From: Tabrizicola sp.
GTDB lineage: Bacteria; Pseudomonadota; Alphaproteobacteria; Rhodobacterales; Rhodobacteraceae
Assembly (NCBI RefSeq): GCF_022842145.1
Contig: NZ_JALHQD010000005.1
Span: forward strand, 186,001 to 250,000
Reading direction: 5' to 3'
Length of the DNA: 64,000 nucleotides
Of the stretch, positions 19,818 through 40,912 are shown one piece after another. The position numbers and the translations under genes are program-made. Numbering within the stretch: position 1 is the first letter of the stretch; the number at the start of each line of letters is the position of its first letter. The notes under the pieces are model-generated. The model ran no database searches and was not told where the DNA came from. It saw only the letters and a list, made by a program, of their open reading frames with translations.

Positions 19818-19832
19818 CATCCTTTGGGTTGA
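19818..19832 (+). promoter_or_regulatory. candidate FlhR operator, site a
   Basis: CATCCTTTGGGTTGA on the plus strand, ending 51 bases before the ATG at 19884. It is one of five near-identical sites; read in reverse it is TCAACCCAAAGGATG. The TTGA half coincides with a plausible -35 position for the ABC operon. It also lies between this operon and the divergent flhR-like gene, so it could mediate autoregulation. Confidence 0.65.
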
Positions 19833-19883
19833 TTTACGGAGGGCGTCCGAAGTGGCATGGTTGAGAAAATCAGGAGTATTACG

Positions 19884-20849
19884 ATGCTTGACCGCTTCCG
19901 CTTGGGCGCTGCGGCGCTTGTGGCTGTTTTGGCCTCAACTCCCGCCTTGGCGGAAGAATTGACGATCGGCACCCTCGCCTCGGGCACGGTGCGGTGGGAA
20001 TTGGACACAATTCAGCACTACGGATTGGACAAGGCGGAAGGCTTCGATCTGAAGATCACGGAACTGGCGGGCAATCCCGCCACCCAGATCGCCCTGGCCG
20101 GGGGCGAGGTCGATGCGATCGTCTCCGACTGGCTGTGGGTCGCGCAGCAGCGGGCCGAGGGCAAGAATTACGTCTTCATCCCGTTCTCCACCGCCGTAGG
20201 TGCGCTTCTGGTACCCCAGGACAGCCCGGCGCAGACGCTGGCGGACCTGAAGGGCAAGAAGATCGGTATCGCCGGCGGACCGGTGGACAAAAGCTGGCTG
20301 ATCCTGCGCGCCTATGCCCGGCAGGAAACCGGCGAGGATCTGGCGACCGTCACGGAACAGGTCTTTGGTGCCCCACCGATGATCTACGAGGCAGGTCTCT
20401 CGGGCGAGGTCGACGGGGTGATCAACTTCTGGAACTTCCTGGCCAAGATGAAGGTCCACGGCATGCGGGAGCTGATCACCGTGGCCGAGGCCGCCACAGC
20501 CTTGGGCCTGGACCCGGCGACGCCGCTTTTGGGCTATGTCATGGATGAACAGCTGGTGCAGGAAAAGCCCGAACTCGCCGCTGCGTTGAAGCGGGCCTCA
20601 CGCGCGGCCAAGGAACTGCTGCTGACCGACGAGGCGGCCTGGCAACGCCTGCGTCCGATCATGAACGCCGAGGATGACGCCGAGTATGCGGCCCTCCGCG
20701 AGGGCTGGCGGCAGGGGGTTCCCGCCGACGCTCCGGTCGACGAGGCCAACGCCGCCAAGGTCTTTGCCCTGATGGTCGAGCTTGGCGGAGAGGAACTGCT
20801 GGGCCAGGTCAAGGAACTGCCCGAAGGCGTGTTCTACAAAGGTGACTAG
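19884..20849 (+). CDS. NitT/TauT-family ABC substrate-binding protein
   Basis: 321 residues. A signal peptide (MLDRFRLGAAALVAVLASTPALAEE) is followed by a periplasmic type II binding fold: LTIGTLASGTVRWELDTI, DLKITELAGNPATQIALAGGEVDAIVSDWLWVA, DLKGKKIGIAGGPVDKSWLIL. The start at 19884 has AGGAG about 8 bases upstream; the earlier ATG at 19857 has no such site. It is the first gene of a three-gene importer. Relatives carry sulfonates, nitrate or thiamine precursors, but this subfamily sits in PQQ-dehydrogenase clusters. A cofactor, chelator or metal complex is a reasonable inference. A site-a operator lies just upstream. Confidence 0.85.
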   Translation: MLDRFRLGAAALVAVLASTPALAEELTIGTLASGTVRWELDTIQHYGLDKAEGFDLKITELAGNPATQIALAGGEVDAIVSDWLWVAQQRAEGKNYVFIPFSTAVGALLVPQDSPAQTLADLKGKKIGIAGGPVDKSWLILRAYARQETGEDLATVTEQVFGAPPMIYEAGLSGEVDGVINFWNFLAKMKVHGMRELITVAEAATALGLDPATPLLGYVMDEQLVQEKPELAAALKRASRAAKELLLTDEAAWQRLRPIMNAEDDAEYAALREGWRQGVPADAPVDEANAAKVFALMVELGGEELLGQVKELPEGVFYKGD

Positions 20850-21621
20850 CCCAGAGCCATTCGGGCGCGCCTCCGGAAGCCTTCCGGTGGTCCTTTCGCT
20901 TGCCGCCTTCCTCGGTCTCTGGGCGGTCGTCGCAGCGATCGTGGCCGAGCCCGCCACGATGCCCGGCCCACTGCGCGTCTGGACCGTACTGGTGGATGAG
21001 GCGGCGTCCGGCCGCCTTCTGACGAACACTGGCATCACCCTCCTCCGCGTGGTCGCCGCCTTCGTCGTGGCGATGGGGATCGGCGTCGCGCTTGGCCTCG
21101 TCCTCGGGCGCAGCGGCAGGACGGACCGCTGGCTGAATCCCTGGCTGGTGATCCTGGTCAACATGCCCGCGCTGGTGGTCACCGTCCTGTGCTACATCTG
21201 GATCGGGTTGAACGAGGTCGCCGCCGTCGCCGCCGTCGTCATCAACAAGGTCCCCCTCGTTACCGTCATGGTACGCGAGGGTTCCCGCGCGCTTCGCCCC
21301 GACCTCGATGACATGGCCCTTATCTTCCGTATGCCGACCGGTGCACGTCTCCGTCATGTCGTCCTGCCGCAGATGGCCCCCTACATCGCCGGGGCTGCGC
21401 GGGCGGGGTTGTCGCTGATCTGGAAGATCGTGCTGGTAGTGGAATTCCTGGGCCGCTCCAGTGGCGTCGGTTTCCAGATCCATCTCAACTTCTCGATGTT
21501 TCGGGTGGCACATATCCTGGCCTATGCATTCGCCTTCATCCTCGTCATGCTGGTGATCGAATACCTGATCCTGCGGCCCTTGGAACGTCATGCCGGGCGG
21601 TGGAGGCAGGATGGACATTGA
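20842..21621 (+). CDS. ABC transporter permease (NitT/TauT type)
   Basis: About 259 residues from a GTG at 20842 that overlaps the stop of the binding-protein gene (GTGACTAG). It has six predicted membrane helices and the inner-membrane EAA-type coupling motif around residues 165-185 (DDMALIFRMPTGARLRHVVLPQMAPYI). Upstream in-frame codons lie inside the preceding gene and are rejected as start. It forms the channel of the importer with the protein at 19884 and the ATPase at 21611. The substrate is unknown. Confidence 0.87.
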   Translation: MTSPEPFGRASGSLPVVLSLAAFLGLWAVVAAIVAEPATMPGPLRVWTVLVDEAASGRLLTNTGITLLRVVAAFVVAMGIGVALGLVLGRSGRTDRWLNPWLVILVNMPALVVTVLCYIWIGLNEVAAVAAVVINKVPLVTVMVREGSRALRPDLDDMALIFRMPTGARLRHVVLPQMAPYIAGAARAGLSLIWKIVLVVEFLGRSSGVGFQIHLNFSMFRVAHILAYAFAFILVMLVIEYLILRPLERHAGRWRQDGH

Positions 21622-22198
21622 CATCAGGGCCAAGTCCTTCGCCGGTCGGCCGGTCCTCGGTCCGGTCCGGCTGACGCTGGCGCAGGGACAACGCGTGGCG
21701 ATCCTGGGGCCATCGGGGATCGGCAAGACCACCCTTCTGCGCATCGTCGCGGGGCTGGACGCCGACTTTGACGGGACCGTCAGCGAGGAGGGTCGCACCA
21801 CGGTGGTCTTTCAGGAACCGACGCTGCTGCCGTGGCGCACGGCGCTGGAGAACATCACCTTACCTGCCGGGGTAACGCCCGAGGTCGCGCGCGGCTTGAT
21901 GGCCGAGGTCGGCCTTGGCGGAAAGGACGCACTATACCCGCGCCAGCTTTCCCTTGGGCAGCAAAGACGGCTTGCGCTGGCGCGGGCATTCGCGCCCTCC
22001 CCCACCACGCTTTTGATGGACGAACCCTTCGCCTCGCTGGATGCCGGAACCGCCGGGCGGATGCTGGATCTGACCGCTGCCCTGCTGGACCGCTCCGAAG
22101 TATCGCTGATCTTCGTGACGCACGACCCGGCCGAGGCGACCCGCCTTAAAGCGCGGGCGCTGACCCTGTCCGGCAGCCCGGCCACGCTGAACGCCTAA
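21611..22198 (+). CDS. ABC transporter ATP-binding protein, short form
   Basis: 195 residues, shorter than the usual 240-260 for this family. The catalytic parts are complete: Walker A GPSGIGKTT, Q loop VVFQEPTLLPWR, signature LSLGQQRR (Leu for the first Gly), Walker B TTLLMDEP, D loop SLD and H-loop THD. The ATG at 21611 follows a GGAGGCAGG site inside the end of the permease gene. The stop overlaps by three bases the stop of the convergent SoxYZ-like gene, leaving no room for a terminator between them. Confidence 0.87.
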   Translation: MDIDIRAKSFAGRPVLGPVRLTLAQGQRVAILGPSGIGKTTLLRIVAGLDADFDGTVSEEGRTTVVFQEPTLLPWRTALENITLPAGVTPEVARGLMAEVGLGGKDALYPRQLSLGQQRRLALARAFAPSPTTLLMDEPFASLDAGTAGRMLDLTAALLDRSEVSLIFVTHDPAEATRLKARALTLSGSPATLNA

Positions 22199-22995
22199 AG
22201 CCCGGTCATGGGAAAGCTTTGGTCAAAGACGTTGCCGTCGGTGTCCTCGGCATGGACGGTGATCCTCTCGGCTCCGTTATCCAGAAAGCGGAACTGGTAG
22301 ACCGGGTCCTCGGAAATCGAGATGCCTGCCGTGACCTTGAACAGAAGGTCATCCCCCTGCCGCACCTCCAGCACATCAACGAAATGCGCCGGGATGTTCA
22401 GCAGCGTCACCTGATCGCGCTGAAAGCCGGTGGTGTTCGGATGCCGCAGCATCAGCTTGGCGGTATGGCGCACCTTCGTGCCTTCCGGCTCCGAGGACAG
22501 GATCTGGAACCGCATCTGGCCCATTTCGGCCTGCAGCGCTTCCAGGTCTTTCGAGGCTGGTGCCGCGCAGCCGCCGCTCGCCTTCACGTAGCGCCCAGCC
22601 AGCACGCTGGCCGTGTCGGTCACGGCAATGGCGCGGATGTTCGAATAGGCGTTGACGCGTAGCCGCAGTTCCATGTCCAGCGGCAGCATGGCGGGGCCCA
22701 GCGTGATCTCGGCCGCCACTGGCGCGGGGTTCTCGTCGATCACCACCGTCAGCGCCCGGATCGCCGGGGCACCGGGCGGCTGGGTCAAATGGACCGGGAC
22801 AAAGGCAGGGTCCATCGCGCGGGTGGGCGCGTCCAATAGCAGAATGTCGGAGTTCTCGGTGGCGGTGTCTCCATCGGGAACCAGCTCTTTCAGCTCTTCC
22901 CAGGCGGTGCTGTCGACCAGCGGGTTGTCCTGCGCCAGTGCTGGCGCAGGGCAGAGCATGATCGCGGTCAGGGCGGCCCGAAAGACGTGCGACAT
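22195..22995 (-). CDS. quinoprotein-associated SoxYZ-like fused carrier protein
   Basis: 266 residues. A signal peptide (MSHVFRAALTAIMLCPAPALAQD) is followed by a SoxY-like domain with the C-terminal KASGGCAAP segment (single Cys in a Gly-rich tail, about residue 140), then a SoxZ-like immunoglobulin-type domain (about 160-265). Fusions of this kind accompany PQQ dehydrogenases rather than sulfur oxidation, and the Cys would carry a covalent adduct in the periplasm. The start at 22995 has GGAGGAAG upstream; a longer reading from 23034 lacks it. Divergent to it is the zinc hydrolase gene (23109), the likely partner enzyme. No sox operon is present. Confidence 0.82.
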   Translation of the reverse strand: MSHVFRAALTAIMLCPAPALAQDNPLVDSTAWEELKELVPDGDTATENSDILLLDAPTRAMDPAFVPVHLTQPPGAPAIRALTVVIDENPAPVAAEITLGPAMLPLDMELRLRVNAYSNIRAIAVTDTASVLAGRYVKASGGCAAPASKDLEALQAEMGQMRFQILSSEPEGTKVRHTAKLMLRHPNTTGFQRDQVTLLNIPAHFVDVLEVRQGDDLLFKVTAGISISEDPVYQFRFLDNGAERITVHAEDTDGNVFDQSFPMTGL

Positions 22996-23044
22996 GACGC
23001 TTCCTCCGCATCCACTACCGCACGAATCCTGCATGCAAACGAGT

Positions 23045-23059
23045 CATACTTTCGGTTGA
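23045..23059 (+). promoter_or_regulatory. candidate FlhR operator, site b
   Basis: CATACTTTCGGTTGA, ending 49 bases before the ATG of the zinc hydrolase gene (23109) and about 50 bases from the start of the divergent SoxYZ-like gene (22995). The same orientation and almost the same distance to the start codon are seen at sites a and c. Confidence 0.65.
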
Positions 23060-23108
23060 TCCCCCACAGTGCGCCGATCCGCTAGACTGCGGGACGGGAG
23101 GTTCCCTC

Positions 23109-24155
23109 ATGTTCCATCTGGTCGTCACCGCCTGCCTTGCATCCGACCCCTCGGTCTGCACCGAGCGCCTGCTGCCCACCCCCGAGCCGTCGACGGAAGC
23201 CGCCTGCACCGAAGGTGCCAAGGCCCGCATTGCCGAATGGGCTGCCCTCCATCCCAACCTGACGACCGGCGACTGGAATTGCCGCCCGACCGAAGACCTG
23301 CCCCGCCTGGAGATGACCGATGTCGCGCCGGGCGTCTTTGTCCACATCGGTCGGTCCGAGCCTGTCTCGATTGCCAACGGCGGGGATATCGCGAACCCTG
23401 GCGTGATCATCGGTGATACGGTGGCCGTGATCGACCCGGGCGGCAGCCGTGCGATTGGCGAAGGGCTTTACGCCGCAATCCGCGATCTGACGGACAAGCC
23501 GATCAGCCATGTGATCCTGACCCACATGCACCCCGACCACATCTACGGTGCCGAGGTCTTTGCCGAGGCCGGGGCGCAAATTATCGGTCACCGCAACCTG
23601 CCCTCGGGACTGGAGCGGCGGGCCGAGGTCTGGGCCGAGAGCATCCCGCGCCAGGCCGGAGCGTTGGCGATGATCGGAACCCAAGCCATCCCGCCGGACC
23701 GGACCGTCGCGGCGCAGGAGGAGATCGCCCTGGGCGGCGCGACGCTGCTGCTTCATCCAGTGGCGACCGCGCATACCGACAATGATCTGACGGTGTACCA
23801 CCTGGAAAGCGGCACTTTGTTCACGGGTGACCTGGTTTTTGCCGGTCTGACGCCCTCTGTCGATGGCTCGTTGACCGGCTGGCTCGACTGGTTGGAGCTT
23901 CCGCCCGACCCCGTGCCGCAGCGGATCGTGCCGGGCCACGGTCCGGTCTCGCTGGGCTGGACGGAAGGCACCGCCCCCCTGCGCACCTATCTGGTTGCGC
24001 TGGCCGACCAGACCCGCGCCGCCATCCGGGCGGGCGAGGCGATGAGCACGGCGGCAACCCATGTCGGCACCGACCAGCGCGGGAACTGGCAGGGCTTTGA
24101 AGAAATCAACGCCCGCAACGCCATCGCCGCCTTCAAGGAACTGGAGTGGGAGTAG
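23109..24155 (+). CDS. quinoprotein relay system zinc metallohydrolase (MBL fold)
   Basis: 348 residues. Metallo-beta-lactamase fold with the metal site THMHPDH (H139, H141, D143, H144), later zinc ligands in VATAHTDND and GDLVFAG, and a final VPGHGP. The first ~65 residues form an extra Cys-containing N-terminal domain (CTERLL, AACTEGAK, WNCRPTED), typical of the 'type 2' relay hydrolases that co-occur with SoxYZ-like carriers and PQQ dehydrogenases. There is no convincing cleavable signal peptide, although the N terminus is moderately hydrophobic. GGGAGG precedes the ATG. Its substrate, probably a thioester-like adduct on the carrier Cys, is inferred from SoxH-type chemistry. Confidence 0.82.
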   Translation: MFHLVVTACLASDPSVCTERLLPTPEPSTEAACTEGAKARIAEWAALHPNLTTGDWNCRPTEDLPRLEMTDVAPGVFVHIGRSEPVSIANGGDIANPGVIIGDTVAVIDPGGSRAIGEGLYAAIRDLTDKPISHVILTHMHPDHIYGAEVFAEAGAQIIGHRNLPSGLERRAEVWAESIPRQAGALAMIGTQAIPPDRTVAAQEEIALGGATLLLHPVATAHTDNDLTVYHLESGTLFTGDLVFAGLTPSVDGSLTGWLDWLELPPDPVPQRIVPGHGPVSLGWTEGTAPLRTYLVALADQTRAAIRAGEAMSTAATHVGTDQRGNWQGFEEINARNAIAAFKELEWE

Positions 24156-24157
24156 GC

Positions 24158-24754
24158 CTAGGGCAGATGCGCCGCGATGGCGCGGCCCAGCGCAAATGCC
24201 CGCTGCTCCAGTATCACCGGTGTTTCGCAGACATAGGTCAGTTGGGCCTGCCGGTCGGTGAAGATGCGGACGTCCCAGTCCAGCCGTTCCTCCTCGGCAT
24301 CCATCTTGTCAAAGTCGGGGTCCAAGGCCGCCGACAGCCGCGCCATCTCGGCCCGCCGCGCCTCGATCTGGGCGCTGAGCGTGAGCTGCTTTTCGGCATA
24401 GCGTTCGACTCCGGCCATGATGCGGGTGCGATAGGCGTCGATCCGGTCGAACACCGCGACGAACAGCGCCGTCAACTCTTGCGCACTGGCTTCCTTGGCA
24501 AAGGCTGCGATCTGAACCTCGGCTTCCTCCATCGGCAAGCGCCGCTGTTCCAGCACCTGGGCCAGCGCTGCGATGTCCGCCCGCTGAGCAAGTATCTCGA
24601 CCGCTGCGTCCGGTGGCGGGCCGGACCAAAGCTGCCCAACCGACAGATGCGGCTGCTTTGGCTGGATACAGGGCCAGGTCGGATCGCCTGACCCGCCGGC
24701 CAGGGCAACTACGGGTAAAGCCAGTATGACGGCGAAAATGAAAATGCTTTTCAT
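24158..24754 (-). CDS. exported helical protein at the end of the lut-like operon
   Basis: 198 residues. A signal peptide (MKSIFIFAVILALPVVALAGG) precedes a mature protein that is nearly all alpha-helical and rich in Ala, Glu and Arg; residues about 60-170 could form long antiparallel helices. Two Cys flank the helices (TWPCIQP and YVCETP). The start at 24754 overlaps the permease stop by ATGA; the much longer upstream frame lies inside the permease gene. It is the last gene of the operon that encodes the Lut/Ped-like ABC system, so a periplasmic helper of that system is likely (a LutG-like exported protein is one option). No domain is recognised. Confidence 0.7.
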   Translation of the reverse strand: MKSIFIFAVILALPVVALAGGSGDPTWPCIQPKQPHLSVGQLWSGPPPDAAVEILAQRADIAALAQVLEQRRLPMEEAEVQIAAFAKEASAQELTALFVAVFDRIDAYRTRIMAGVERYAEKQLTLSAQIEARRAEMARLSAALDPDFDKMDAEEERLDWDVRIFTDRQAQLTYVCETPVILEQRAFALGRAIAAHLP

Positions 24755-25566
24755 GCCCCTGTTCCTTTCCGTCGGCCCCACAGGCCCTTTGCAGGATCGT
24801 ACATGTAGACCGCCGCCGCGAAGAACGCGGCAAAGCCCCCGGCCGTGACCAGAAACGAGGTTGGATCGAACTGCAGATACAGCGCAAAGCGGATCAGCTC
24901 GACCGCATGGGTGAAGGGGTTCACCGCACATATCCAGTAGAGAAGCTCGCTGGATTCCTTCATCCGCCAAAGGGGGTAAAGTGCCGACGAGGCAAAGAAC
25001 ATCGGGAAGATCAGGAAGTTCATCACCCCCGCAAAGTTCTCGAGCTGCCGGATGGTGGAGGACACGAACAGCCCCAGCGCCCCAAGCATCAACCCCGACA
25101 GGACCAGCGCAGGCAGCACGGCCAGATAGCCAAGGGCGGGCGGTCTTACATCCCAGGCCCAGGCGATCAACAGGAAGGTGTAGACCTGCAGGATCGACAC
25201 GAAGACCCCCGCCATGAGCTTTGACAGAAGCAGGAACCAGCGCGGCGCGGGGCTGACCAGCAGCGTCCGCATCGCCCCGGTTTCCCGGTCGTAGACCATC
25301 GACAGCGAGGACTGCATCCCGTTGAAAAGCTGGATCATCGCGCAAAGACCGGGGGTTACGTAGACCTCGTAAAGCACGTAGGTCTGGTAGGGCGGCGTGA
25401 TGGACAGACCCAACACGGCCCGAAAGCCTGCCGCGAAGATGAAAAGCCAGACCAGGGGCCGCACCAGCGCCGCGACGAACCGCCCGCGCTGGTTGACGAA
25501 GCGCAAAGCCTCGCGCCAGACGATGCCGCGGAAGACGATGGTCCAGGCGCGCCAGCCACCAGTCAT
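24751..25566 (-). CDS. lutF: ABC-2 permease of PQQ-alcohol-dehydrogenase system (LutF/Ped-like)
   Basis: 271 residues with six hydrophobic segments. The ABC-2 core motif lies in the MVYDRETGAMRTLLVSPAPRW stretch after TM2. The protein matches the permease always found with the PQQ-dependent alcohol dehydrogenase ABC system. Its counterparts are LutF in Methylorubrum and a PedABC component in Pseudomonas putida, where the transporter is needed for growth with lanthanide-dependent enzymes. ABC-2 architecture is normally exporter-like, yet a periplasmic binding protein (27266) is encoded with it, an unusual pairing typical of this system. It overlaps both neighbours by 4 bases. Confidence 0.82.
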   Translation of the reverse strand: MTGGWRAWTIVFRGIVWREALRFVNQRGRFVAALVRPLVWLFIFAAGFRAVLGLSITPPYQTYVLYEVYVTPGLCAMIQLFNGMQSSLSMVYDRETGAMRTLLVSPAPRWFLLLSKLMAGVFVSILQVYTFLLIAWAWDVRPPALGYLAVLPALVLSGLMLGALGLFVSSTIRQLENFAGVMNFLIFPMFFASSALYPLWRMKESSELLYWICAVNPFTHAVELIRFALYLQFDPTSFLVTAGGFAAFFAAAVYMYDPAKGLWGRRKGTGA

Positions 25567-26288
25567 GCCTCTGCCCCCGTCAGCGTCAGGAAGGCGCGCG
25601 TCAGCCCTTCGGACCCCGCCATGTCGCGGGCGATTCCATGCGCCAGCACCGCGCCTTGGTGGAGAATGTAGACATCATCCTCCGCCCCGATCTCGTCCAG
25701 GATATGCGTGGCCCAAAGGACCGAGACCCCGTTCCCCGTCAGCCCACGGACCAAGGCCAGCACCTCGCGGCGTGAACGGACGTCCAGCCCGGTGGTCGCC
25801 TCGTCCAAGAGCAAAAGGTCCGGGCGGTTGATCAGAGCCCGCGCGATCTCGGCCCGGCGCTGCTGGCCGCCCGACAAAGCCGCGACCTTCATTCCGGCCC
25901 TGTCGGCCAGATCGACCTGCACCAGCACCTCGGCAATGAGGGTATGGGCCATCGCCCGACCGATGCCGTGCAACGCTGCGTGGTAGGCCAGGTTCTGCAT
26001 GACCGTCAGGTCGCTGTCCAAGGCGCGGGTCTGGAACACCACCCCCAGCCGGGCCAGGGCCTTGCCCGGAACGCGGCGCAGGTCATGCCCCGCGACCCGG
26101 ATCACGCCGCTGGTGTTGTCGTAAAGCCGGGTGATCAGCGAGAAAAGCGTCGTCTTCCCGGCCCCGTTCACCCCCAGCAAAGCCACAAACCGCCCGCGCG
26201 GCACCACAAGGTCAACGTCCCGAAGCGCCACGACCTTGCCGAAGGCGTGGCTTACCCCCGTGATCTCCAGAGCCGGGCTCTCCTCCAT
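25563..26288 (-). CDS. lutE: ABC ATPase of PQQ-alcohol-dehydrogenase system (LutE-like)
   Basis: 241 residues. Walker A GVNGAGKTT, Q loop VVFQTRALDSDLTV, signature LSGGQQRR, Walker B LLLLDEATTGLD and H-loop ATHILDE. The sequence is of the CcmA/NodI class that pairs with ABC-2 permeases. It overlaps the permease gene by ATGA and follows the beta-propeller gene by 12 bases. Together with 24751 and 27266 it forms the Lut/PedABC-type transporter linked to lanthanide or PQQ-enzyme physiology. Confidence 0.87.
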   Translation of the reverse strand: MEESPALEITGVSHAFGKVVALRDVDLVVPRGRFVALLGVNGAGKTTLFSLITRLYDNTSGVIRVAGHDLRRVPGKALARLGVVFQTRALDSDLTVMQNLAYHAALHGIGRAMAHTLIAEVLVQVDLADRAGMKVAALSGGQQRRAEIARALINRPDLLLLDEATTGLDVRSRREVLALVRGLTGNGVSVLWATHILDEIGAEDDVYILHQGAVLAHGIARDMAGSEGLTRAFLTLTGAEA

Positions 26289-26300
26289 GCCGCTCTCCGT

Positions 26301-27257
26301 TCAATCAGGACCCACAACGATGCCCCAGGGTTGCTGGCCGACGGGAACCGAGCGGATGACCTCCCCCGCCGCCACGTCGATCACCGAGACGTCGTTGGAA
26401 TTGCCGTTAGTGGTGAAGAGAAGGCTTTCGTCCGGCGTGAAGGCCAGCTGCCAGACCCGCTGACCGACCAGAAGGTAGTCCAGCACCTCGAATGTCGTCC
26501 CATCGATGACCGCCACCCGGTTCGCCGGCCCCAGCGCCACGAAGATCCTGGAACCATCCTGCGTGATCTTCAGCCCCACTGGCTGGATCGCCTCGGGCAG
26601 GACACCGGGGATCTCGAAGCCGATCTTGTGGACCACCTCCTTCGTCGCCACGTCGATCACCGCAACGGTCCCGCCGATCTCGGCCGTGACGAACAGAAGC
26701 TTGCCGTCCGAGGTGAACTGCGCGTAGCGCGGGCGCTGGTCCACCAAAACGTTCGCCACGATCTGCGACGTCGCCGTGTCGATGAAGTGCGCCATGTTGG
26801 TCGTCTCGGAGGTGTTGACCACAAAAGCCCCATCGGGCGAGATCGCCATCCCCTCCGGCTCCACCCCCACAGGGACTTCGGCCAGCATCCGGTGCGACTG
26901 CACGTCCACGATGGTGACCAGGTTGTCGTCCTCATTCGCGATGTAAAGCGGATTGCCGCTGGGATGCAGCACGAACAGCTCCGGGTCCGGGCCGGACGGC
27001 AGGGTATGCGTCTCGGTATAGGTCTCGGTCTCGAATACCCGCACCGTGTCGTCGTCCGAGGCGCAGACATACAGCTCTTTCCCATCGGGCGAGATCGTGA
27101 TCCCCCGCGGTCGGTTTCCCGCCGGGAAGGTGGCGATCACCTCCAGCGTCTCGCTTTCCAGAACGGTGATGTCGTTGCCCTTCTCGTTGGTGATGTAGAC
27201 CTTGTTGGCCAGCGCGGGATGGGCCAGCAGGACAAGGGACAGGGCGGCAAGACGCAT
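26301..27257 (-). CDS. PQQ-associated YVTN beta-propeller exported protein
   Basis: 318 residues. A signal peptide (MRLAALSLVLLAHPALANK) is followed by seven YVTN-type blades, each with the pattern VxVIDxxTxxVxxxxxxGxxPxGxxxSPDG. The start at 27257 has GAGG upstream; the longer reading begins inside the previous gene. This is the 'PQQ-dependent catabolism-associated beta-propeller' that accompanies lutAEF-type genes (possibly LutB). It is probably a periplasmic scaffold or ligand-binding protein. It contains no heme or PQQ motif. It lies 8 bases after the binding-protein gene. Confidence 0.85.
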   Translation of the reverse strand: MRLAALSLVLLAHPALANKVYITNEKGNDITVLESETLEVIATFPAGNRPRGITISPDGKELYVCASDDDTVRVFETETYTETHTLPSGPDPELFVLHPSGNPLYIANEDDNLVTIVDVQSHRMLAEVPVGVEPEGMAISPDGAFVVNTSETTNMAHFIDTATSQIVANVLVDQRPRYAQFTSDGKLLFVTAEIGGTVAVIDVATKEVVHKIGFEIPGVLPEAIQPVGLKITQDGSRIFVALGPANRVAVIDGTTFEVLDYLLVGQRVWQLAFTPDESLLFTTNGNSNDVSVIDVAAGEVIRSVPVGQQPWGIVVGPD

Positions 27258-27265
27258 GGGGGACC

Positions 27266-28441
27266 TCATGGGAAGGAACATTCGGTTTCGGGACGGTCCC
27301 TCCCAAGCGTGTCAAGCTGCGACACCTGGTGCAGGAACGCATCTTGCGGCGAGACGGTTACGGTCAGCGCTCCGGTCGTCAGCAGGATCGGCTGACGCAG
27401 CTGATGGTCCCAGTCGCGGATCGTCAGCTTCTGGCCCTTGAAGCCCGCGACCTCGAACTCCGGTGACAGGATGTGCTCGCGCAAATTCGCGGGGTCGCCC
27501 GATTGCGTGCGTGTCGCCGCCTCGCCAACGATGCGGATGGCAAGCCAGGCCTGATAATCCTCTTCGCGCATCGGGCGGCCGGCCATCGCCTCGAACCGGT
27601 TCTGGAACTGCGTGGCACCCCAGGCCTCCAGCGCCGGGTGCCAGGTGCGTGGCACGAGGCCAGCGGAACCCGCGACAGGCCGTGCGTCCCAGGTCTGGAA
27701 CGGCAGGTATTCGGCGAAGATCCCCGCCTCGTCCGCGGCAATCAGGATGTCATGATCCTCCGCGCCCTGCGTGAAGACCGGCATCTGTTTTTGCACCTGG
27801 ACATGCCCGGTATCGGTGCGCCGCGCGCCGCCGGTGTCCTCATAGACCCGTTCCTCGACGATCTCGGCCCCGAACTTCGTGGCCGCGGTGCGGAACGCCT
27901 GGGCAAGGTCGACGTCAGCCGGATGGCTGCCAGCGACCAGAAACCAGCTGTCCCACTTCTTCCACGCCAGGAACTGCGCCAAGGCATCGGCGAGCATCGC
28001 GTGGCTTGGGGCCACATGGACCACGTTTCCCCGACAGTCCGCGCCGCGCAACCCGTCACCCCGTGCGCCAGCGTTCAAGATCAGCGCCCGATCCCCGGCC
28101 AGATCGGTCAAGGCCAGCGTGGTGGCGTCGTCGGCCAGGATGACGACGAACCCCGCACCCCCGGCCAAGGCTTCCTCCAAAGCGGCGGCCGCAGTGTCAG
28201 GTGTCGCCACGAAGTCGGCGGTCTCGAAAATCTGGCCCATGAAGCTGCCGGTGGTGGCATTGTCCTCGGTCCCAAGTCGCGCACCCGCGAGGCCCAGGTC
28301 GGCGGGCGCCAGGTCCAGCCGCGAGATGGGCGGTAGCCCTGCCACATCCACCCGCAGGACGGCGGCCCTGATCAGGGTGTCGGCCTCCGCCAAGGCTGGT
28401 GCCAGAAGCCCCACCAGGCTGATCGCTGCAATGAACTGCAT
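27266..28441 (-). CDS. lutA: ABC substrate-binding protein of PQQ-alcohol-dehydrogenase system (LutA-like)
   Basis: 391 residues. A signal peptide (MQFIAAISLVGLLAPALAEAD) precedes a type I periplasmic binding fold of the branched-chain amino-acid-binding class: DNATTGSFMGQIF, ALAGGAGFVVILADDATTL, HVAPSHAMLADALAQFLAWKKWDSWFLVAGSHPADVDLA. It is the first gene of the operon 28441-24158, with GAGGAGTG before the ATG. Homologues are LutA (Methylorubrum) and a PedABC-associated protein (P. putida), both tied to lanthanide uptake or sensing. The site-c operator lies 48 bases upstream. Confidence 0.83.
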   Translation of the reverse strand: MQFIAAISLVGLLAPALAEADTLIRAAVLRVDVAGLPPISRLDLAPADLGLAGARLGTEDNATTGSFMGQIFETADFVATPDTAAAALEEALAGGAGFVVILADDATTLALTDLAGDRALILNAGARGDGLRGADCRGNVVHVAPSHAMLADALAQFLAWKKWDSWFLVAGSHPADVDLAQAFRTAATKFGAEIVEERVYEDTGGARRTDTGHVQVQKQMPVFTQGAEDHDILIAADEAGIFAEYLPFQTWDARPVAGSAGLVPRTWHPALEAWGATQFQNRFEAMAGRPMREEDYQAWLAIRIVGEAATRTQSGDPANLREHILSPEFEVAGFKGQKLTIRDWDHQLRQPILLTTGALTVTVSPQDAFLHQVSQLDTLGRDRPETECSFP

Positions 28442-28489
28442 AGGCCACTCCTCGGTTGATTGGGCCACAGCGGCGCGGGAAGCGTCAAT

Positions 28490-28505
28490 TCAACCAAAAG
28501 GTTGA
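28490..28505 (-). promoter_or_regulatory. candidate FlhR operator, site c (perfect palindrome)
   Basis: TCAACCAAAAGGTTGA is a perfect inverted repeat with half-sites TCAACC/GGTTGA around AAAA. It lies 48 bases before the lutA-like ATG (28441, minus) and 66 bases before the divergent ATG at 28572. It is the most symmetrical of the five copies and defines the dimeric half-site. One site could serve both divergent promoters. Confidence 0.7.
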
Positions 28506-28571
28506 GAGTTCCCCCCGAATTCATCCTTCCGACGGATTGCGGGACCCGGGTCCGGCTCGCATCCTGCTGCC

Positions 28572-29075
28572 ATGAAAGCCGCCGTCGCATCCCTGGCCCT
28601 GCTTCTCTGGGCCAACCCGGTCCCCGCGCAAGAGCCGCCCACTCCGGGTAGGGTCGCCTTCTTCGGCTTGCGCTTTATCGACATGTCCACCGAGGGTGCC
28701 ATGAACGGCGTCCGCCCGGATGAATCGACCCGCACCAAGATGGCCAGCGCGTTGGTCGCCGAGGACATGGTCGCCCGTGGGTTCGAGCTCGTCCCGATTG
28801 ACCCGGTGGCCAAGCGGCTTGAGACGATCACCAACCCCACGGACTGCAATGGCTGCGACACCGCCATGGCGGCCGAGCTTGGGGCGGATTATGCGCTGAC
28901 CGGCGAGGTGCGGAAGATCTCCAACCTCATCCTCAGCCTTGAACTCAACTTGCGCGATGCGGAAAGCGGGCAGACGCTGCGGGCCGGAACCGTGGACATT
29001 CGTGGCAACACGGATGAAACTTGGAGGCGCGGGTTCAGCTACCTTTTGCGCAATATCATCTTCCGGCAACGCTAG
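28572..29075 (+). CDS. exported DUF3280/DUF2380-type protein
   Basis: 167 residues with a signal peptide (MKAAVASLALLLWANPVPAQE). The mature part has the pattern of the DUF3280 family: RVAFFGLRFIDMSTEG, TKMASALVAEDMVARGFELV, CNGCDTAMAAELGADYALTGEVRKISNLILSLELNLRD, GNTDETWRRGFSYLLRN. The CxxC (CNGC, about residues 95-98) may be redox-active. Members occur beside xoxF or PQQ dehydrogenase genes; the biochemical role is unknown. It is transcribed divergently from the lut-like operon and converges on the xoxF operon. Confidence 0.78.
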   Translation: MKAAVASLALLLWANPVPAQEPPTPGRVAFFGLRFIDMSTEGAMNGVRPDESTRTKMASALVAEDMVARGFELVPIDPVAKRLETITNPTDCNGCDTAMAAELGADYALTGEVRKISNLILSLELNLRDAESGQTLRAGTVDIRGNTDETWRRGFSYLLRNIIFRQR

Positions 29076-29080
29076 CCGCG

Positions 29081-29623
29081 TCAGCCTGCCTGGAACGGCT
29101 CCACCCGCACCAAAGGCGGGTTTCCAGGCAGCGTCACCCAACCCTCGGGCCCCTCCGGATACCAGATCACCTGCGTATAGCCCAACTCCAAGGCCCGCTT
29201 GGCGACGTTCCAGGACATCCAGCAGTCCGCTCGGCAGAAGACGACGATGGCCTGATCTCGGTTGCCTTTGGTCGCTTGCTCCAGCCCGGCGCGCAGATAG
29301 GCTTCCTCTTCCGGTGACAGCGACTGGAACCCGGTGTTCGGCAACCAGATCGAACCCGGAATGCTGTCACGCGGCTTGTCGCGCCAGATCGTACCCTCGG
29401 GCAGGTCCGCTGGTTTGACGTCACGCGGCATCACGTCGATGAAGACCGCCTTGCCGTCGCGGTGCAAGGCCGCCGCGGCCTGGTTGTCCACCACCGTCGC
29501 CCCGGCCAAGGTGTCGGGAACCGGGGCCGCATAGGGCGGTCCGCGATAGCCCTCCGGCTCGGGCGGGACCTGACCAAGGGCAGGTCCCGCAAGCGCAAGC
29601 GCCAGGACCAGCCAAAGCTTCAC
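29081..29623 (-). CDS. PQQ-dependent catabolism-associated Cys-motif protein (rhodanese-like)
   Basis: 180 residues. A signal peptide (MKLWLVLALALAGPALGQV) precedes a rhodanese-like fold. The family hallmark sits in VVFCRADCWMSWNVAKRALELGY, a Cys-x3-Cys-Trp where a rhodanese active loop would be. The family is named for this motif and is confined to PQQ-dehydrogenase clusters; it probably handles a periplasmic thiol or disulfide step, for example cytochrome or dehydrogenase maturation. It overlaps the xoxJ stop by ATGA and is last in the xoxF-xoxG-xoxJ operon. Confidence 0.83.
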   Translation of the reverse strand: MKLWLVLALALAGPALGQVPPEPEGYRGPPYAAPVPDTLAGATVVDNQAAAALHRDGKAVFIDVMPRDVKPADLPEGTIWRDKPRDSIPGSIWLPNTGFQSLSPEEEAYLRAGLEQATKGNRDQAIVVFCRADCWMSWNVAKRALELGYTQVIWYPEGPEGWVTLPGNPPLVRVEPFQAG

Positions 29624-30459
29624 GGCGCAGCCTCCTGCAATGCGGTCCCCTGGTCATTCACCAGGGGCACACCCGCCTTGGTCAGGATCGCCACGATCTC
29701 GGCCTGGTTGCGGCGGATAAGCGAGTTCAACTCGCGCTTCCAGTCCTGGTCGCTGGGGCGCACGCCCATCGTGATCCGGTAGAACAGCTTGGGGCTGGCT
29801 GTTTCCTGCAAAAGGGGAGTGACCGTCAGAGCCGGGTTGCCCTTGGCCAAAGGTCCGCCAATCGGCCCCCACAGGATGGCCGCGTCGATTGCGCCCGATT
29901 GCAGATCGGCCAGCATGTCGCCCGCCGGGTCCTGCACCCGCCGGTCCACGATCAGCGGATAGGGCTTTGCCAGCGCCATCAGCCCATGCTGCGCCACGTG
30001 CGAGGCCGGAGGCGTTCCCGCCACGATGCCGATCCGGCGGCCCTGCAACGCGGGGTCGGTCAAGGTCTCGACCTTGGCCAGCGCATCGTCGCTCCGCGTC
30101 ACCAGGACATAGACCGAGGTGTAGTAATGATTGGTGTTCTGCACCAGCTCATCGCCCTGCGCATAGCCGATGACCACGTCGCACACCCCGGCGCGCAGCG
30201 TCTTGCGGATGAAGCCGGGCCCCATCGGAAACCACGTGGTCTCCAGCGGCCGGTCCAGGCGTTCGGCCAGAAGTTCGGCGATCTCGTTCTCGAATCCCTT
30301 GGTTTCGCGGCCCGAGAGCGGCAGGTTGGCGGGATCGGCACAAACCCGGAAGGCAGTGGAAGATACCAGGTCCGCCGTCTGTGCCGACACTGCCCCTGCG
30401 GAAAGCATCAGGCTCAAGACGACAGGCCAGACCTTAGCTGTCCATGCAGGACTCTTCAT
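29620..30459 (-). CDS. xoxJ: XoxJ, periplasmic binding-protein-like partner of XoxF
   Basis: 279 residues. A signal peptide (MKSPAWTAKVWPVVLSLMLSAGAVSAQT) precedes a type II periplasmic binding fold: FRVCADPANLPLSG, KGFENEIAELLAERL, WFPMGPGFIRKTLRAGVCDVVIG, VAGTPPASHVAQHGL. XoxJ proteins are encoded with xoxF and xoxG and are thought to help activate or mature XoxF rather than feed a transporter; no ABC genes follow here. The ATG at 30459 lies 26 bases inside the xoxG reading frame and has GAGG upstream. Longer readings have no signal sequence. Confidence 0.87.
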   Translation of the reverse strand: MKSPAWTAKVWPVVLSLMLSAGAVSAQTADLVSSTAFRVCADPANLPLSGRETKGFENEIAELLAERLDRPLETTWFPMGPGFIRKTLRAGVCDVVIGYAQGDELVQNTNHYYTSVYVLVTRSDDALAKVETLTDPALQGRRIGIVAGTPPASHVAQHGLMALAKPYPLIVDRRVQDPAGDMLADLQSGAIDAAILWGPIGGPLAKGNPALTVTPLLQETASPKLFYRITMGVRPSDQDWKRELNSLIRRNQAEIVAILTKAGVPLVNDQGTALQEAAP

Positions 30460-30952
30460 TGGCCGCGACCTCCTCGCTCTTTTCCGCTCGCTTGGCCGGA
30501 CGGCCGCGGGGAACCGCATCCGTCCCGCGGGCCTTGAGATAGGTGTAGATGTCGTCCAGGTAGCACATGACATTCGGGTTGGTTCCAAAGGACGGCATGA
30601 CCGAATTCTGGCCACCGCCCACCTTCTGGCGGCCCTCGGCCACCACGGTGTAGAAATCATAGTAATCCATCACCACCGCGGACCTCTTCAGCGCGGGCGC
30701 GTAGGTCGACCCCTCGCCATCCGGTCCGTGGCAGACATGGCATTCCGCGTGGTAGCGCCGGAACCCCGAGAAGGTGGCCCAATCGACCGTGCCATCCTCC
30801 TCGATCTTGTAGGTCGGAATCCCCTCTGCCGTCATCCAGCGCCCGTTTTCCTCATGGTCGGCCACCAGGTTCGGGTCGGTCTCCTGCGCCTGCAGTGGCA
30901 GCGCGACCAGGGCGATCACTCCGATGGCACTGAAAAGATTGGTCTTCGGCAT
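30434..30952 (-). CDS. xoxG: XoxG, cytochrome c electron acceptor of XoxF
   Basis: 172 residues. A signal peptide (MPKTNLFSAIGVIALVALPLQAQ) precedes a class I c-type cytochrome with one heme site, CHVCH (C71, C74, H75). The axial Met is probably in VMPSFG. A Glu/Lys-rich C-terminal tail ends at ESCMDS. It takes electrons from the PQQ of XoxF. The start at 30952 is chosen for the signal peptide and the AAGGAT site about 10 bases upstream; Met codons at 30970 and further up are less likely. It lies 92 bases after xoxF and overlaps xoxJ. Confidence 0.9.
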   Translation of the reverse strand: MPKTNLFSAIGVIALVALPLQAQETDPNLVADHEENGRWMTAEGIPTYKIEEDGTVDWATFSGFRRYHAECHVCHGPDGEGSTYAPALKRSAVVMDYYDFYTVVAEGRQKVGGGQNSVMPSFGTNPNVMCYLDDIYTYLKARGTDAVPRGRPAKRAEKSEEVAANEESCMDS

Positions 30953-31044
30953 GTTGCGGTTATCCTTCATCTTTCGCATCGCACGAAACGCGGGGGCCGC
31001 CATGCCCCGGTCGAAGCATGGCGGCCCGGTCAGTTTGGTATGTG

Positions 31045-32847
31045 TCAGTCCGACAGTTCGAACACGGTAAGCTGGCCGCCCAGTGCGGTGTAATCGGACA
31101 GCGCCGCATAGCCGCCCACCGCGCCAAGCCCTTCGTTCGGGTTGGTCAGACCAGCCGCCAGACCGATCCCGGCCCAGCCGCCGACGCCCGAGAGGACGGC
31201 GATGTACTGCTTGCCGCCCTGCTCATAGGTCATCACGTTGCCGATGATACCGGACGGGGTCTTGAACTTGTAAAGCTCCTCGCCCGTCGCGGCATCGATG
31301 GCCTTCAGATAGCCCTCCAGCGTGCCGTAGAAGACGACGTCCCCTGCGGTCGCCAAAGCACCCGACCAGACCGAGAACTGCTCGGGCAGCGACCACTTGA
31401 TCTCGCCCTTGACGTTGTCCCAGGCGATGAAGTTGCCCATCCCGCCGTGGCTGTTCGGAGCCGGGTACATCGACAGCGTGGCCCCGACATAGGGCTGACC
31501 TGCGGCGTAGCTGACCTTGAACGGCTCATAGTCCATGCAGACGTGGTTGGTCGGCACGTAGAACAGATTGGTCTTCGGGCTGTAAGCCGCCGGCTGCTGA
31601 TCCTTGGTCCCAAGCGCCGCTGGGCAAACGCCCATCGTGTTGGTGTCTTCGCCAGTCTGTTCGGTCGAATACTCCTTGACCACCGCCGGACGACCGTAGG
31701 TGGGCGAGGCCGGGTCCATGTCGACACCCGTGGTCCAGTTCACTGCGGGATCATACTTCTCGGCCACCAGAAGCTCGCCCGTTTCGCGGTCCATCGTATA
31801 GCTGATGCCGTTGCGGTCGAAGTGGGTCAGAAGCTTGCGCGGCTGGCCGTTGAAGTCCTGGTCGGTCAGGATCATCTCGTTGACCCCGTCAAAGTCCCAC
31901 TCGTCATGCGGGGTCATCTGATAGACCCATTTCGCCATGCCGGTATCGGCGTCACGTGCGAAGATGGTCATCGACCACTTGTTGTCGCCGGGACGCTGCT
32001 TCGGGTTCCAGGTCGAAGGGTTGCCGGTGCCGTAGTAGATCAGGTTCAGGTCGGGGTCATAGGCATACCAGCCCCAGGTCGTGCCACCGCCGATCTTCCA
32101 CTGATCGCCCTCCCAGGTGCTGATCGAGCTGTCCTTGCCGATCGGCTTGCCCAGATGGGTGGTCTTCTCCGGATCGACCATCAGTTGATCGTCCGGGCCG
32201 ACCGAATAGGCCCGCCACAGCTGCTCGCCCGTCTCGATGTTGTAGGCCGTGACATGGCCCTGGACGCCGAACTCGCCACCCGAGATGCCGACGATCAGCT
32301 TGTCCTTGACCGGCAGCACGGTGGCTGTGTTGGTCTCGCCCTTGGTCGGATCGCCGTTGACCACCGACCACTTCGTCTCGCCAGTCTTGGCATCCAGTGC
32401 CACCAGCGTGGTGTCGGCCTGATGCAGGAAAACCTTGCCGTCGGCATAGGCGAGGCCCCGGTACACCGTGTCGCAGCACATCACCGCGATCACATCCGGG
32501 TTCTGCTTCGGCTCATAGCGCCACAGGATCTTGCCTTCATTCGCCAGGTCCAGCGCGTAGACCACGTTGGGGAACGGCGTGTGGACATACATGATGTCGC
32601 CGACCACAAGGGGCGAGCCCTCGTGCCCGCGCAGCACGCCGGTCGAGAAGGTCCAGGCGACCTTCAGATCCTTCACGTTGTCCTTGGTGATCTGGGCCAG
32701 CTCCGAGTACCGGGTGTTAGCATAGTCCCCGGTCTGGATTGCCCATTGCTTTGCATTGCCGATTGCTTCCGTCACGCTCTCGTTGGCGGATGCCGAAACG
32801 GACATCCCCAGCGCAAGCGCGATGGACAAGGTGCCTAAGGTCTTCAT
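31045..32847 (-). CDS. xoxF: lanthanide-dependent methanol dehydrogenase XoxF
   Basis: 600 residues. A signal peptide ([23 protein letters not shown]) precedes an eight-bladed PQQ propeller. The vicinal disulfide pair is C124-C125 ([10 protein letters not shown]). Metal and PQQ ligands are visible at E192 (SGGEFGV) and N276 (GTGNPSTW). The active site reads [11 protein letters not shown]318 is the catalytic base and D320, two residues on, is the extra Asp that marks lanthanide-dependent enzymes (Ala in calcium-dependent MxaF). It oxidises methanol, and possibly formaldehyde, in the periplasm and passes electrons to XoxG. GGAGGC precedes the ATG. The first gene of its operon, with the site-d operator 183 bases upstream. 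No mxaF or mxaI occurs in the window. Confidence 0.96.
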
Positions 32848-33030
32848 GGTGCCTCCTCCGATGGCCAGTTTGGTCGGCCGACTGATGTTCAACGGCAAAC
32901 CGGGAACGGTCGAGCCAGAGGGTTTCTGGCTCGCTGTCTTCACGACGAGCGGCATTGAACTGCCGCTTCCATTTTCCTCATTTCATTAGGTTGCCCGTTC
33001 CTCCACCGGTCAACCTTCGCCCCCGAGTTC

Positions 33031-33045
33031 TCAACCTAAAGTATG
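33031..33045 (-). promoter_or_regulatory. candidate FlhR operator, site d
   Basis: TCAACCTAAAGTATG on the plus strand, so CATACTTTAGGTTGA in the xoxF direction. It lies in the 234-base gap between the adhC-type gene's stop and xoxF, 183 bases before the xoxF ATG, implying a long xoxF leader or an additional promoter element. The other four copies sit 48-62 bases from their start codons. Confidence 0.6.
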
Positions 33046-33081
33046 GCCACGCCACGGTTTTTGTGGCGCGGCCAGCTTGCG

Positions 33082-34218
<1,137 letters not shown>

Positions 34219-34315
34219 CTGATATTCCTCCCAGGTGTCAATCCCGGCCATGCGGACGGGGCGCGGAAGGGCGTCACCGCCCCACCGCCGAAGTGCAGGT
34301 CGTGGCCGACCTGGC

Positions 34316-34891
34316 CTAGTCTTTCAGGACGCCGCTGGCCTTTGCGGTGAAACTGGCGATGTAATCCATCAGCGCAGGCGACAGCGCGTCATAGGGCGGC
34401 AGGCCCAGTTCGTTCAGCCGGGCACGGATGCCGTCCATCGCCTCGGGCCGGGTGCCGCTTTCGATCACCGACGACACGAAGGCCGCAAATGTGGGGGCCG
34501 CCCAACCTTCCTCGCCCGAAAGCTCGGTGTGGATGAAACTCAGGCCGGTGAACGGGTGGTTCTCACGCGTGACCGGGCCATGCAGGTGCACGCCGCAACC
34601 GGTGCAGGCGTGCCGCTGAATCAGCGCCGACGGATCGACAACCTTCAGTTTGCCCTCATTCCGCGTCACCTTGACCTTGTCGGATGGCACGACGGAAACC
34701 ATCGAGAAGATCGCCCCCTCGGGCTTCCAGCACTTGGTGCAGCCACAAACGTGATTGTGCAGGCAATCCGAGGAAATCTCGACTTCCACCGGGTCCGAAG
34801 CGCAGTTGCACGTCAGCGTTCCGCCGGAAAATCCGGATCTGCCGGGTTTGACACCATTGTCCACCGCCGGGTGGATACTGACCGTCGCCAT
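34316..34891 (-). CDS. gfa: S-(hydroxymethyl)glutathione synthase (Gfa)
   Basis: 191 residues. Glutathione-dependent formaldehyde-activating enzyme of the Mss4-like zinc fold. Zn-binding Cys clusters are visible in [19 protein letters not shown] and ACTGCGVH. It captures formaldehyde as S-hydroxymethylglutathione for the dehydrogenase encoded immediately downstream. The start ([13 protein letters not shown]) has GGGAGGCG just upstream; longer upstream reading is not conserved in character. It is first in the gfa-adhC operon, with the site-e operator 62 bases before the ATG. Confidence 0.95.
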
Positions 34892-34953
34892 TTTCGCGCC
34901 TCCCCTGGTTTTCTGTGAGGAACAGCGTGGCATCGATACGAATAGTCCGCAAT

Positions 34954-34968
34954 TCAACCAAAAGGATG
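34954..34968 (-). promoter_or_regulatory. candidate FlhR operator, site e
   Basis: TCAACCAAAAGGATG on the plus strand, that is CATCCTTTTGGTTGA towards gfa. It lies 62 bases before the gfa ATG. Conserved positions relative to the other copies are TCAACC, AAAG and the terminal TG. Confidence 0.65.
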
Positions 34969-36174: not shown

Positions 36175-36234
36175 CGCGTCTCCTCTTTCGCGGATTCGGT
36201 GATAGCTTGGACCCGCAAACCCTGGGAGCGAACC

Positions 36235-39845: not shown

Positions 39846-40912
<1,067 letters not shown>

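What the first reader, a model, noticed from the sequence alone, without database searches (positions are those of the whole stretch)
19818..34968. A palindromic 15-16 bp motif marks five transcription units of the xoxF / formaldehyde island
Reading by eye, TCAACCnAAAGkWTG occurs at 19818-19832 (reverse), 23045-23059 (reverse), 28490-28504, 33031-33045 and 34954-34968. In every case the CAWmCTTTnGGTTGA strand points towards a start codon: an ABC operon (51 bases), the MBL hydrolase (49), the lutA-like operon (48), xoxF (183) and gfa-adhC (62). The copy at 28490 is a perfect inverted repeat, TCAACC-AAAA-GGTTGA, as expected for a dimeric GerE-type regulator. An FlhR-like LuxR-family regulator with its kinase is encoded inside the island. 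This gives a concrete regulon: methanol oxidation, formaldehyde detoxification, the lanthanide-type transporter, the relay hydrolase and an uncharacterised importer under one switch.
Basis: partly seen in the sequence, partly recalled or inferred. Interest (0 to 1): 0.85.

Follow-up and report, generated by a model that had tools for sequence, protein, structure and literature searches.

The report
Shared switch site of methanol-oxidation island
Five copies of one short DNA signal sit in front of the methanol-oxidation, metal-uptake and formaldehyde-removal genes of this bacterium, and related bacteria with the same regulator carry the signal too, so it is probably the docking site of that regulator, although binding has not been shown.

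Summary
The five sites are at the stated places and are the only exact matches in the 4.33 Mb genome. A matrix trained only on 16 xoxF promoters of other genera ranks three of the five first, second and third in the window. In the genus, all 5 of 32 genomes with xoxF carry the exact site; 1 of the 27 without it does. In the window and 20 of 80 relatives an [AC]CTTT core lies 28-29 nt upstream of a TTGAC -35 hexamer before xoxF. Of 46 relatives tested, 18 have a close homologue of the island regulator; these 18, and one more, have that promoter. At gfa and the lanthanide-transporter operon the box abuts the -35 region instead. Most likely this is the operator of the island's FlhR/AfdR-type response regulator, used at two promoter geometries (about -60 at xoxF, about -44 elsewhere; start sites inferred). 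What is conserved between genera is an asymmetric core, not the palindrome. Binding, phosphorylation and signal were not tested. It is a known kind of regulon with an operator I did not find described.

The parts
16436..17797 (-). hybrid histidine kinase (HisKA, HATPase, receiver); no sensor domain matched
   Evidence: Pfam; NahK/ErcS-type model below its cut-off
17798..18964 (-). FIST-domain protein, NosP-like, counterpart of AfdT/RfdT/orf2
   Evidence: Pfam FIST and FIST_C; NosP model 303.7 bits, cut-off 450; gene order as in the review passages
18969..19679 (-). LuxR/GerE response regulator, FlhR/AfdR-type; proposed to bind the five boxes
   Evidence: Pfam Response_reg and GerE; co-occurrence with the xoxF box
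19818..19832 (+). box 1, CATCCTTTGGGTTGA, between the regulator operon and the ABC operon
   Evidence: kept in 5 of 5 congeners, also in G022 where the ABC operon is absent
19884..22198 (+). ABC importer operon (NMT1/SsuA-like binding protein, permease, ATPase)
22195..22995 (-). quinoprotein dehydrogenase-associated SoxYZ-like carrier, divergent from the MBL gene
   Evidence: TIGR04557 above cut-off
23045..23059 (+). box 2, CATACTTTCGGTTGA, before the MBL gene
   Evidence: 4 of 5 congeners with at most 2 mismatches, G004 with 3
23083..23088 (+). TAGACT, probable -10 of the MBL promoter (no -35 seen)
   Evidence: sequence; same CGCTAGACT in G009, G016 and G022
23109..24155 (+). quinoprotein relay system zinc metallohydrolase 2 (MBL fold)
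   Evidence: TIGR04559 above cut-off
24158..28441 (-). lanthanide-transporter-type operon (PedA1A2BC/lut-like): binding protein, YVTN beta-propeller, ABC ATPase, permease, CXXCW protein
   Evidence: TIGR03863 above cut-off for the binding protein; gene order; PedA1A2BC described in PMC12997753 passages
28483..28488 (-). TTGACG, possible -35 of the lut operon, one base after box 3
   Evidence: sequence; TTG kept one base after the box in 5 of 5 congeners
28490..28505 (-). box 3, perfect inverted repeat TCAACCAAAAGGTTGA, between lut operon and DUF3280 gene
   Evidence: 5 of 5 congeners with at most 2 mismatches
28572..29075 (+). DUF3280 gene, divergent from the lut operon
   Evidence: Pfam PF11684
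29081..31003 (-). second CXXCW/rhodanese-type gene, xoxJ-like and xoxG-like genes
   Evidence: ORFs; weak Pfam hits for the last two; names by position and recall
31045..32847 (-). xoxF, PQQ methanol dehydrogenase
   Evidence: TIGR03075 above cut-off; 592 relatives in genome contigs, best 80 kept
33008..33013 (-). TTGACC, -35 of xoxF, starting 29 nt after the A of ACTTT
   Evidence: same spacing (28-29) in 21 of 81 upstream regions
33031..33045 (-). box 4, CATACTTTAGGTTGA, before xoxF
   Evidence: exact in 5 of 5 congeners with xoxF
33082..34251 (-). adhC, S-(hydroxymethyl)glutathione dehydrogenase
   Evidence: TIGR02818 above cut-off
34316..34891 (-). gfa, S-(hydroxymethyl)glutathione synthase
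   Evidence: TIGR02820 above cut-off
34947..34952 (-). TTGCGG, possible -35 of gfa-adhC, one base after box 5
   Evidence: 20 of 25 gfa loci have TTG one base after a box-like element (regex written after seeing them)
34954..34968 (-). box 5, CATCCTTTTGGTTGA, before gfa-adhC
   Evidence: kept with 1 mismatch at the three other orthologues of 87% identity or more

Best explanation
The five sites are the operator of the FlhR/AfdR-type response regulator encoded in the island. Proposed mechanism: the cytoplasmic-looking hybrid kinase, with the NosP-like FIST protein as possible sensor partner, leads to phosphorylation of the regulator when methanol or formaldehyde is present; the regulator dimer binds the box and recruits RNA polymerase. 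At xoxF the box centre is about 60 bp upstream of the inferred start, behind an ordinary -35 (class I-like). At gfa-adhC, the lanthanide-transporter operon, the relay hydrolase and the ABC importer it abuts or replaces the -35, about 44 bp upstream (class II-like). Box 1 may also control the regulator operon. Shown: the sites, their confinement in this genome, their conservation, the fixed spacing at xoxF, the co-occurrence with the regulator. Inferred: binding, phosphorelay, signal, sign of control, autoregulation and all start sites.
For: Only five exact genome hits, all in a 15-kb stretch. Matrix from 16 promoters of other genera ranks three of five sites top in the window. 23 of 24 unit-sites kept with at most 2 mismatches in five congeners. 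xoxF spacing of 28-29 nt in 21 of 81 regions, other distances at most 1, shuffles at most 2. 18 of 18 genomes with a close regulator homologue have this xoxF promoter, against 1 of 28 without; the close homologues form one clade, 100/100. In the genus, regulator orthologue and xoxF are in the same five genomes, plus G010 with a regulator only. Cereibacter johrii, a relative of the organism in which AfdRS controls adhI (PMC4776306 passages), has box-like sites before MBL, xoxF and adhC. Regulator-FIST-kinase order as in AfdRTS, RfdRTS and FlhR-orf2-FlhS.
Against: No binding or expression data. Co-occurrence rests on one clade, so it is not 18 independent events, and shared ancestry of the whole island explains part of it. 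Oceanicella has the xoxF promoter but only a 42% regulator. G010 has a 77% regulator without xoxF found, in a 59%-complete genome. 2 of 29 genomes outside the genus, and G007 inside it, have exact pattern hits without xoxF-linked context seen. The matrix from other genera does not single out lut and gfa. The box before the regulator is not seen in a constant place in Paracoccus. MBL box of G004 is degraded; gfa of Cereibacter lacks a box. Genome-wide, the composite xoxF pattern is not more frequent than its reversed control (26 against 56). A paralogous cassette exists. The hybrid kinase shows no HPt domain, so an unseen partner would be needed. A review states that an rfdT mutant did not change adhI expression, which speaks against a simple sensor role of that FIST protein.
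Confidence: 0.75

Rival explanations
1. The box is a true operator but is bound mainly by another regulator, for example the 45% identical response regulator of the second cassette on contig C11, or both compete at the same box as activator and repressor, as AfdR and RfdR do at adhI.
For: The own genome holds a second regulator-FIST-kinase cassette. R. sphaeroides uses two such systems on one promoter (PMC4776306 passages).
Against: The paralogue is in 12 of 32 congeners, 10 of which lack xoxF and the exact box, whereas the island regulator tracks xoxF and the box.
Confidence: 0.15
2. The motif is part of the core promoter, an extended -35 element or an alternative sigma factor site, and not a regulator site.
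For: Its TTGA end resembles a -35, and at four units it lies where a -35 is expected.
Against: At xoxF it lies 29 nt upstream of a separate TTGAC -35, in 21 of 81 regions at 28-29 nt. At gfa and lut a TTG follows one base after it. It is dyad-like, and co-occurs with a DNA-binding response regulator.
Confidence: 0.06
3. The likeness is chance, or copied sequence, with no function.
For: The pattern was chosen by eye from these five sequences.
Against: Matrices not trained on a given site recover it. The box stays at the same place in congeners while its surroundings change. The flanks of the five sites do not look alike.
Confidence: 0.03

Closest known systems
FlhR-orf2-FlhS of Paracoccus denitrificans
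   Same: Regulator, FIST-like protein and kinase in this order; controls glutathione-dependent formaldehyde oxidation and methanol oxidation (review passages PMC8879981, PMC4776306). 14 Paracoccus species have a 60-63% regulator homologue and the xoxF box.
   Different: P. denitrificans itself was not examined here. There flhRS is described as away from flhA-fghA. I found no operator for it in the held papers.
AfdRTS and RfdRTS of Rhodobacter sphaeroides
   Same: Same gene order; AfdRS activates and RfdRS represses adhI (review passages). A relative, Cereibacter johrii, has the island, a 56% regulator and box-like sites before MBL, xoxF and adhC.
   Different: Which of the two the island regulator corresponds to was not settled. 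R. sphaeroides 2.4.1 itself was not examined. Known target is adhI; here xoxF, lut, MBL, gfa and ABC are proposed as well.
NosP, NahK/ErcS' and ErbR (AgmR/PedR1) of Pseudomonas
   Same: Homologous FIST protein, hybrid kinase and LuxR-type regulator beside PQQ alcohol dehydrogenase, PedA1A2BC lanthanide transporter and relay genes (PMC12997753 passages; model hits).
   Different: All three island proteins score under the cut-offs of the NosP, NahK/ErcS and ErdR models. Pseudomonas uses the system for other alcohols. Its operator was not compared.

Membership tests
FlhR/AfdR/RfdR-type two-component cassette | LuxR/GerE response regulator, FIST-type protein and histidine kinase adjacent in this order | tested here: met
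   window 19679-16436; reference order from review passages; that the reference orf2/T proteins are FIST proteins was not tested
FlhR/AfdR/RfdR-type two-component cassette | High sequence similarity to the characterised FlhR, AfdR and RfdR proteins | tested here: inconclusive
   56-63% identity to homologues in Cereibacter johrii and Paracoccus; the characterised proteins themselves were not compared
FlhR/AfdR/RfdR-type two-component cassette | Controls transcription of glutathione-dependent formaldehyde oxidation genes | not testable with these tools
   Only a box before gfa-adhC
NosP / NahK(ErcS') / ErdR families | Curated cut-offs of the NCBIfam models | tested here: not met
   303.7 of 450, 339.4 of 400 and 136.5 of 390 bits: homologous, not filed as members
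Response-regulator operator (GerE-type dimer site) | Dyad symmetry of the site | tested here: inconclusive
   Perfect at one of five sites; 5, 4, 4 and 3 of 6 arm pairs at the others; cross-genus core is asymmetric
Response-regulator operator (GerE-type dimer site) | Fixed position relative to the promoter | tested here: met
   28-29 nt before TTGAC at xoxF in 21 of 81 regions; one base before TTG at gfa in 20 of 25 loci
Response-regulator operator (GerE-type dimer site) | Bound by the regulator | not testable with these tools
   No binding assay

The most novel reading that the evidence does not exclude
One FIST-kinase-regulator cassette, through one operator used at two fixed promoter geometries, co-ordinates lanthanide uptake, the lanthanide methanol dehydrogenase, the quinoprotein relay hydrolase, formaldehyde removal, an unassigned importer and itself, in Paracoccus, Cereibacter and the window's genus. 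The two geometries would let detoxification (gfa, promoter-abutting) and formaldehyde production (xoxF, upstream site) respond with different thresholds to the same phosphorylated regulator, with the NosP-like FIST protein as the missing formaldehyde or redox sensor.
Probability: 0.25. Interest if true: 0.72.

Novelty: new member of a known kind. Interest (0 to 1): 0.52.

Why it matters
FlhRS and AfdRS/RfdRS have been described since 2001 and 2004 (dates as cited in the review) as switches of formaldehyde oxidation, but the passages I saw in held papers give no operator. A concrete box with defined spacings makes the regulon testable by reporter and footprint. It ties lanthanide uptake and xoxF to the formaldehyde switch, and it predicts that the ABC importer beside the regulator, also present in at least 7 of 14 Paracoccus loci looked at, belongs to methanol metabolism.

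Tried and rejected
Exact-pattern search in xoxF loci of relatives: only L021-L023 had the exact site before xoxF, and L088 had one mismatch. L021-L023 are the same contigs, by length and match position, as those of congeners G009, G016 and G022, so they are not independent. This looked like a failure of conservation until the shared core and the -35 spacing were seen.

The first scan of orthologue loci was mis-oriented for minus-strand loci and is not used; it was redone.

Off-island matches: the nine loci from the own genome (L006-L011, L267-L269) lie inside ORFs or beside genes that, by my reading of the translations, are not C1 genes (glyoxalase-like, ferredoxin-like, ABC permease); one lies 155 nt upstream of an AtpI-like ORF. 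S-formylglutathione hydrolase, pqq and formate dehydrogenase genes were not located, so a weaker box there is not excluded. Of 29 genomes outside the genus 2 have exact hits (G037 two, G044 one), and in the genus G007 has one without xoxF; their contexts were only looked at for ORFs and, for G007, for island genes.

The composite xoxF pattern in 22 genomes gave 26 hits: 20 are the xoxF promoter by sequence, one each in 20 of 22 genomes, and six lie elsewhere. The reversed control gave 56, so the pattern is not enriched in number; the result shows place only.

A box before the regulator gene outside the genus: the loose core matched in 4 of 14 Paracoccus loci (5 hits) at no constant place, and in Cereibacter and QY30 at other places again. 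A box-like element before the ABC binding protein was seen by eye in 5 of the 7 Paracoccus loci that reach that gene; no statistics.

A family search meant to reach a Pseudomonas control genome found no control over the cut-off. Literature searches listed no paper that I recognised as giving an operator for FlhR, AfdR, RfdR or AgmR; I read passages of five papers, none in full. The 2004 and 2001 primary papers are not held, so a description there cannot be ruled out.
Full report
OBSERVATION. With a looser pattern five of ten genome hits are these. Because the pattern was read off the five sites I used two less circular tests. Leave-one-out matrices put each held-out site above all 127,963 non-site positions of the window. 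A matrix made only from 16 xoxF promoters of other genera (14 Paracoccus, Cereibacter johrii, isolate QY30) ranks the window's xoxF, MBL and ABC sites 1, 2 and 3; lut is 8th and gfa 12th.

SITES AND GENES. Each box reads towards a start codon. NCBIfam models above cut-off name the PQQ methanol/ethanol dehydrogenase family (XoxF), Gfa, AdhC, the relay metallohydrolase, the SoxYZ-like carrier and the PQQ-associated binding protein. Pfam names the response regulator, FIST protein and hybrid kinase and the ABC parts. Three boxes lie between divergent genes: regulator|ABC, SoxYZ-like|MBL and DUF3280|lut. The last is the perfect palindrome; at the others 5, 4, 4 and 3 of 6 arm pairs match (by hand).

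CONSERVATION IN THE GENUS. XoxF is in 5 of 32 genomes of the genus. The exact pattern is in these five and in one other; the hypergeometric chance is about 3e-5 (hand calculation). Of five units in five congeners, 24 could be compared, and 23 keep the box with at most two mismatches. The failure is MBL of G004, three mismatches at the same place. The 25th, gfa of G009, has only a 60% homologue, without a box. G022 lacks the ABC operon beside the regulator but keeps the box there in a conserved block. This suggests that box 1 also serves the regulator operon; recent loss of the ABC operon is the alternative.

CONSERVATION BETWEEN GENERA. Outside the genus the exact 15-mer is not found before xoxF. 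Yet upstream of xoxF [AC]CTTT lies 29 nt (19) or 28 nt (2) before TTGAC in 21 of 81 regions (80 loci plus the window); no other distance from 6 to 150 has more than one. In 200 mononucleotide shuffles no distance exceeded 2. The positives are the window, three congener contigs (L021-L023), 14 Paracoccus, Cereibacter, Oceanicella and QY30; the other 60 loci, among them Ruegeria, Roseovarius, Ancylobacter and Sinorhizobium, lack it. In 22 such genomes 20 of 26 hits of the composite element were the xoxF promoter, but the reversed control had 56 hits. At gfa, [AC]C[CT]TT-N4-[TC][GC]A-N-TTG occurs in 20 of 25 loci, 67-91 nt before the start, against 12 hits in 620,884 strand-bases of background (regex written after seeing the data). 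In 8 of 13 Paracoccus MBL loci the box points the other way and is directly followed by TTGA, so a divergent gene seems to be served there. A box-like element precedes the ABC binding protein in 5 of 7 Paracoccus loci by eye. Cereibacter johrii has box-like sites at MBL, xoxF and adhC.

REGULATOR. In the genus the island regulator (85% identity or more) is in the same five genomes as xoxF; a 77% homologue is in G010, a 59%-complete genome without xoxF found. Of 46 named xoxF genomes searched, chosen from 80, 18 have a homologue of 53-96%; 22 have at best 35-45% and 6 none at E 1e-35. All 18 have the 28-29 nt xoxF promoter; of the other 28 only Oceanicella has. Two of the 18 are congeners already counted. 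In a 46-row tree the 22 close homologues lie on one side of a branch with full support; the label was set by identity and G010 is among them. One clade means that the co-occurrence is not a set of independent events.

MECHANISM. Position suggests an activator. At xoxF the box centre is about 60 bp upstream of the inferred start, behind a good -35. At gfa and lut a TTG follows the box by one base, which puts the centre near -44. At MBL there is a TAGACT -10 but no visible -35, as at activator-dependent promoters (general knowledge). The cassette order matches AfdRTS, RfdRTS and FlhR-orf2-FlhS, which control formaldehyde oxidation (PMC4776306 passages; PMC8879981 passages). That AfdR activates adhI directly in vitro is recalled from the 2004 abstract, which I could not open. 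The kinase shows only HisKA, HATPase and receiver domains, so the FIST protein is a plausible sensor partner, as NosP is for NahK in Pseudomonas (PMC12997753 passages); this is inference, and the unchanged adhI expression of an rfdT mutant speaks against it.

WHAT IS NEW. The regulator type, its link to formaldehyde genes and the island are known. The operator, its two spacings, and the inclusion of xoxF, the lanthanide transporter, the relay hydrolase and the ABC importer were not found in the papers I could search; most subscription papers are not held. I rate it a new member of a known kind, well supported as a cis element and circumstantial as to the protein that binds it.

Noticed in passing
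own genome G000:C1:222148-223302 (L207, L263): Second adhC copy, 99% identical to the island's over residues 5-389, with one in-frame TGA reported; no gfa match beside it. G016 has two partial adhC matches at contig ends.
   Followed up: partly
own genome G000:C11 (L131, 8142-12167): A second cassette of response regulator, FIST protein and hybrid kinase (46, 39 and 40% identical), as in R. sphaeroides with its two systems.
   Followed up: partly
G022, L128 7384-8416: The ABC importer operon is absent between regulator and SoxYZ-like gene, but the box and a block upstream of it are kept.
   Followed up: yes
L242-L255 upstream of MBL genes (Paracoccus): The box points away from MBL with TTGA directly after it in 8 of 13 loci, so an unidentified divergent gene may be the target.
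   Followed up: no
L279 (Paracoccus onchidii, G066:C10:58730): An off-island match of the composite promoter lies before a TonB-dependent-receptor-like ORF (by reading the translation) and just after a 56% identical adhC paralogue; possibly a metal-uptake target, possibly chance.
   Followed up: partly
window 14507-15126: Two overlapping minus-strand ORFs read like parts of a broken tyrosine integrase (by eye), at the edge of the island.
   Followed up: no
window 35098-42019: Beside the island, genes that by eye resemble a TorT/TorS/TorR-type sensor system and a glycine betaine ABC transporter.
   Followed up: no
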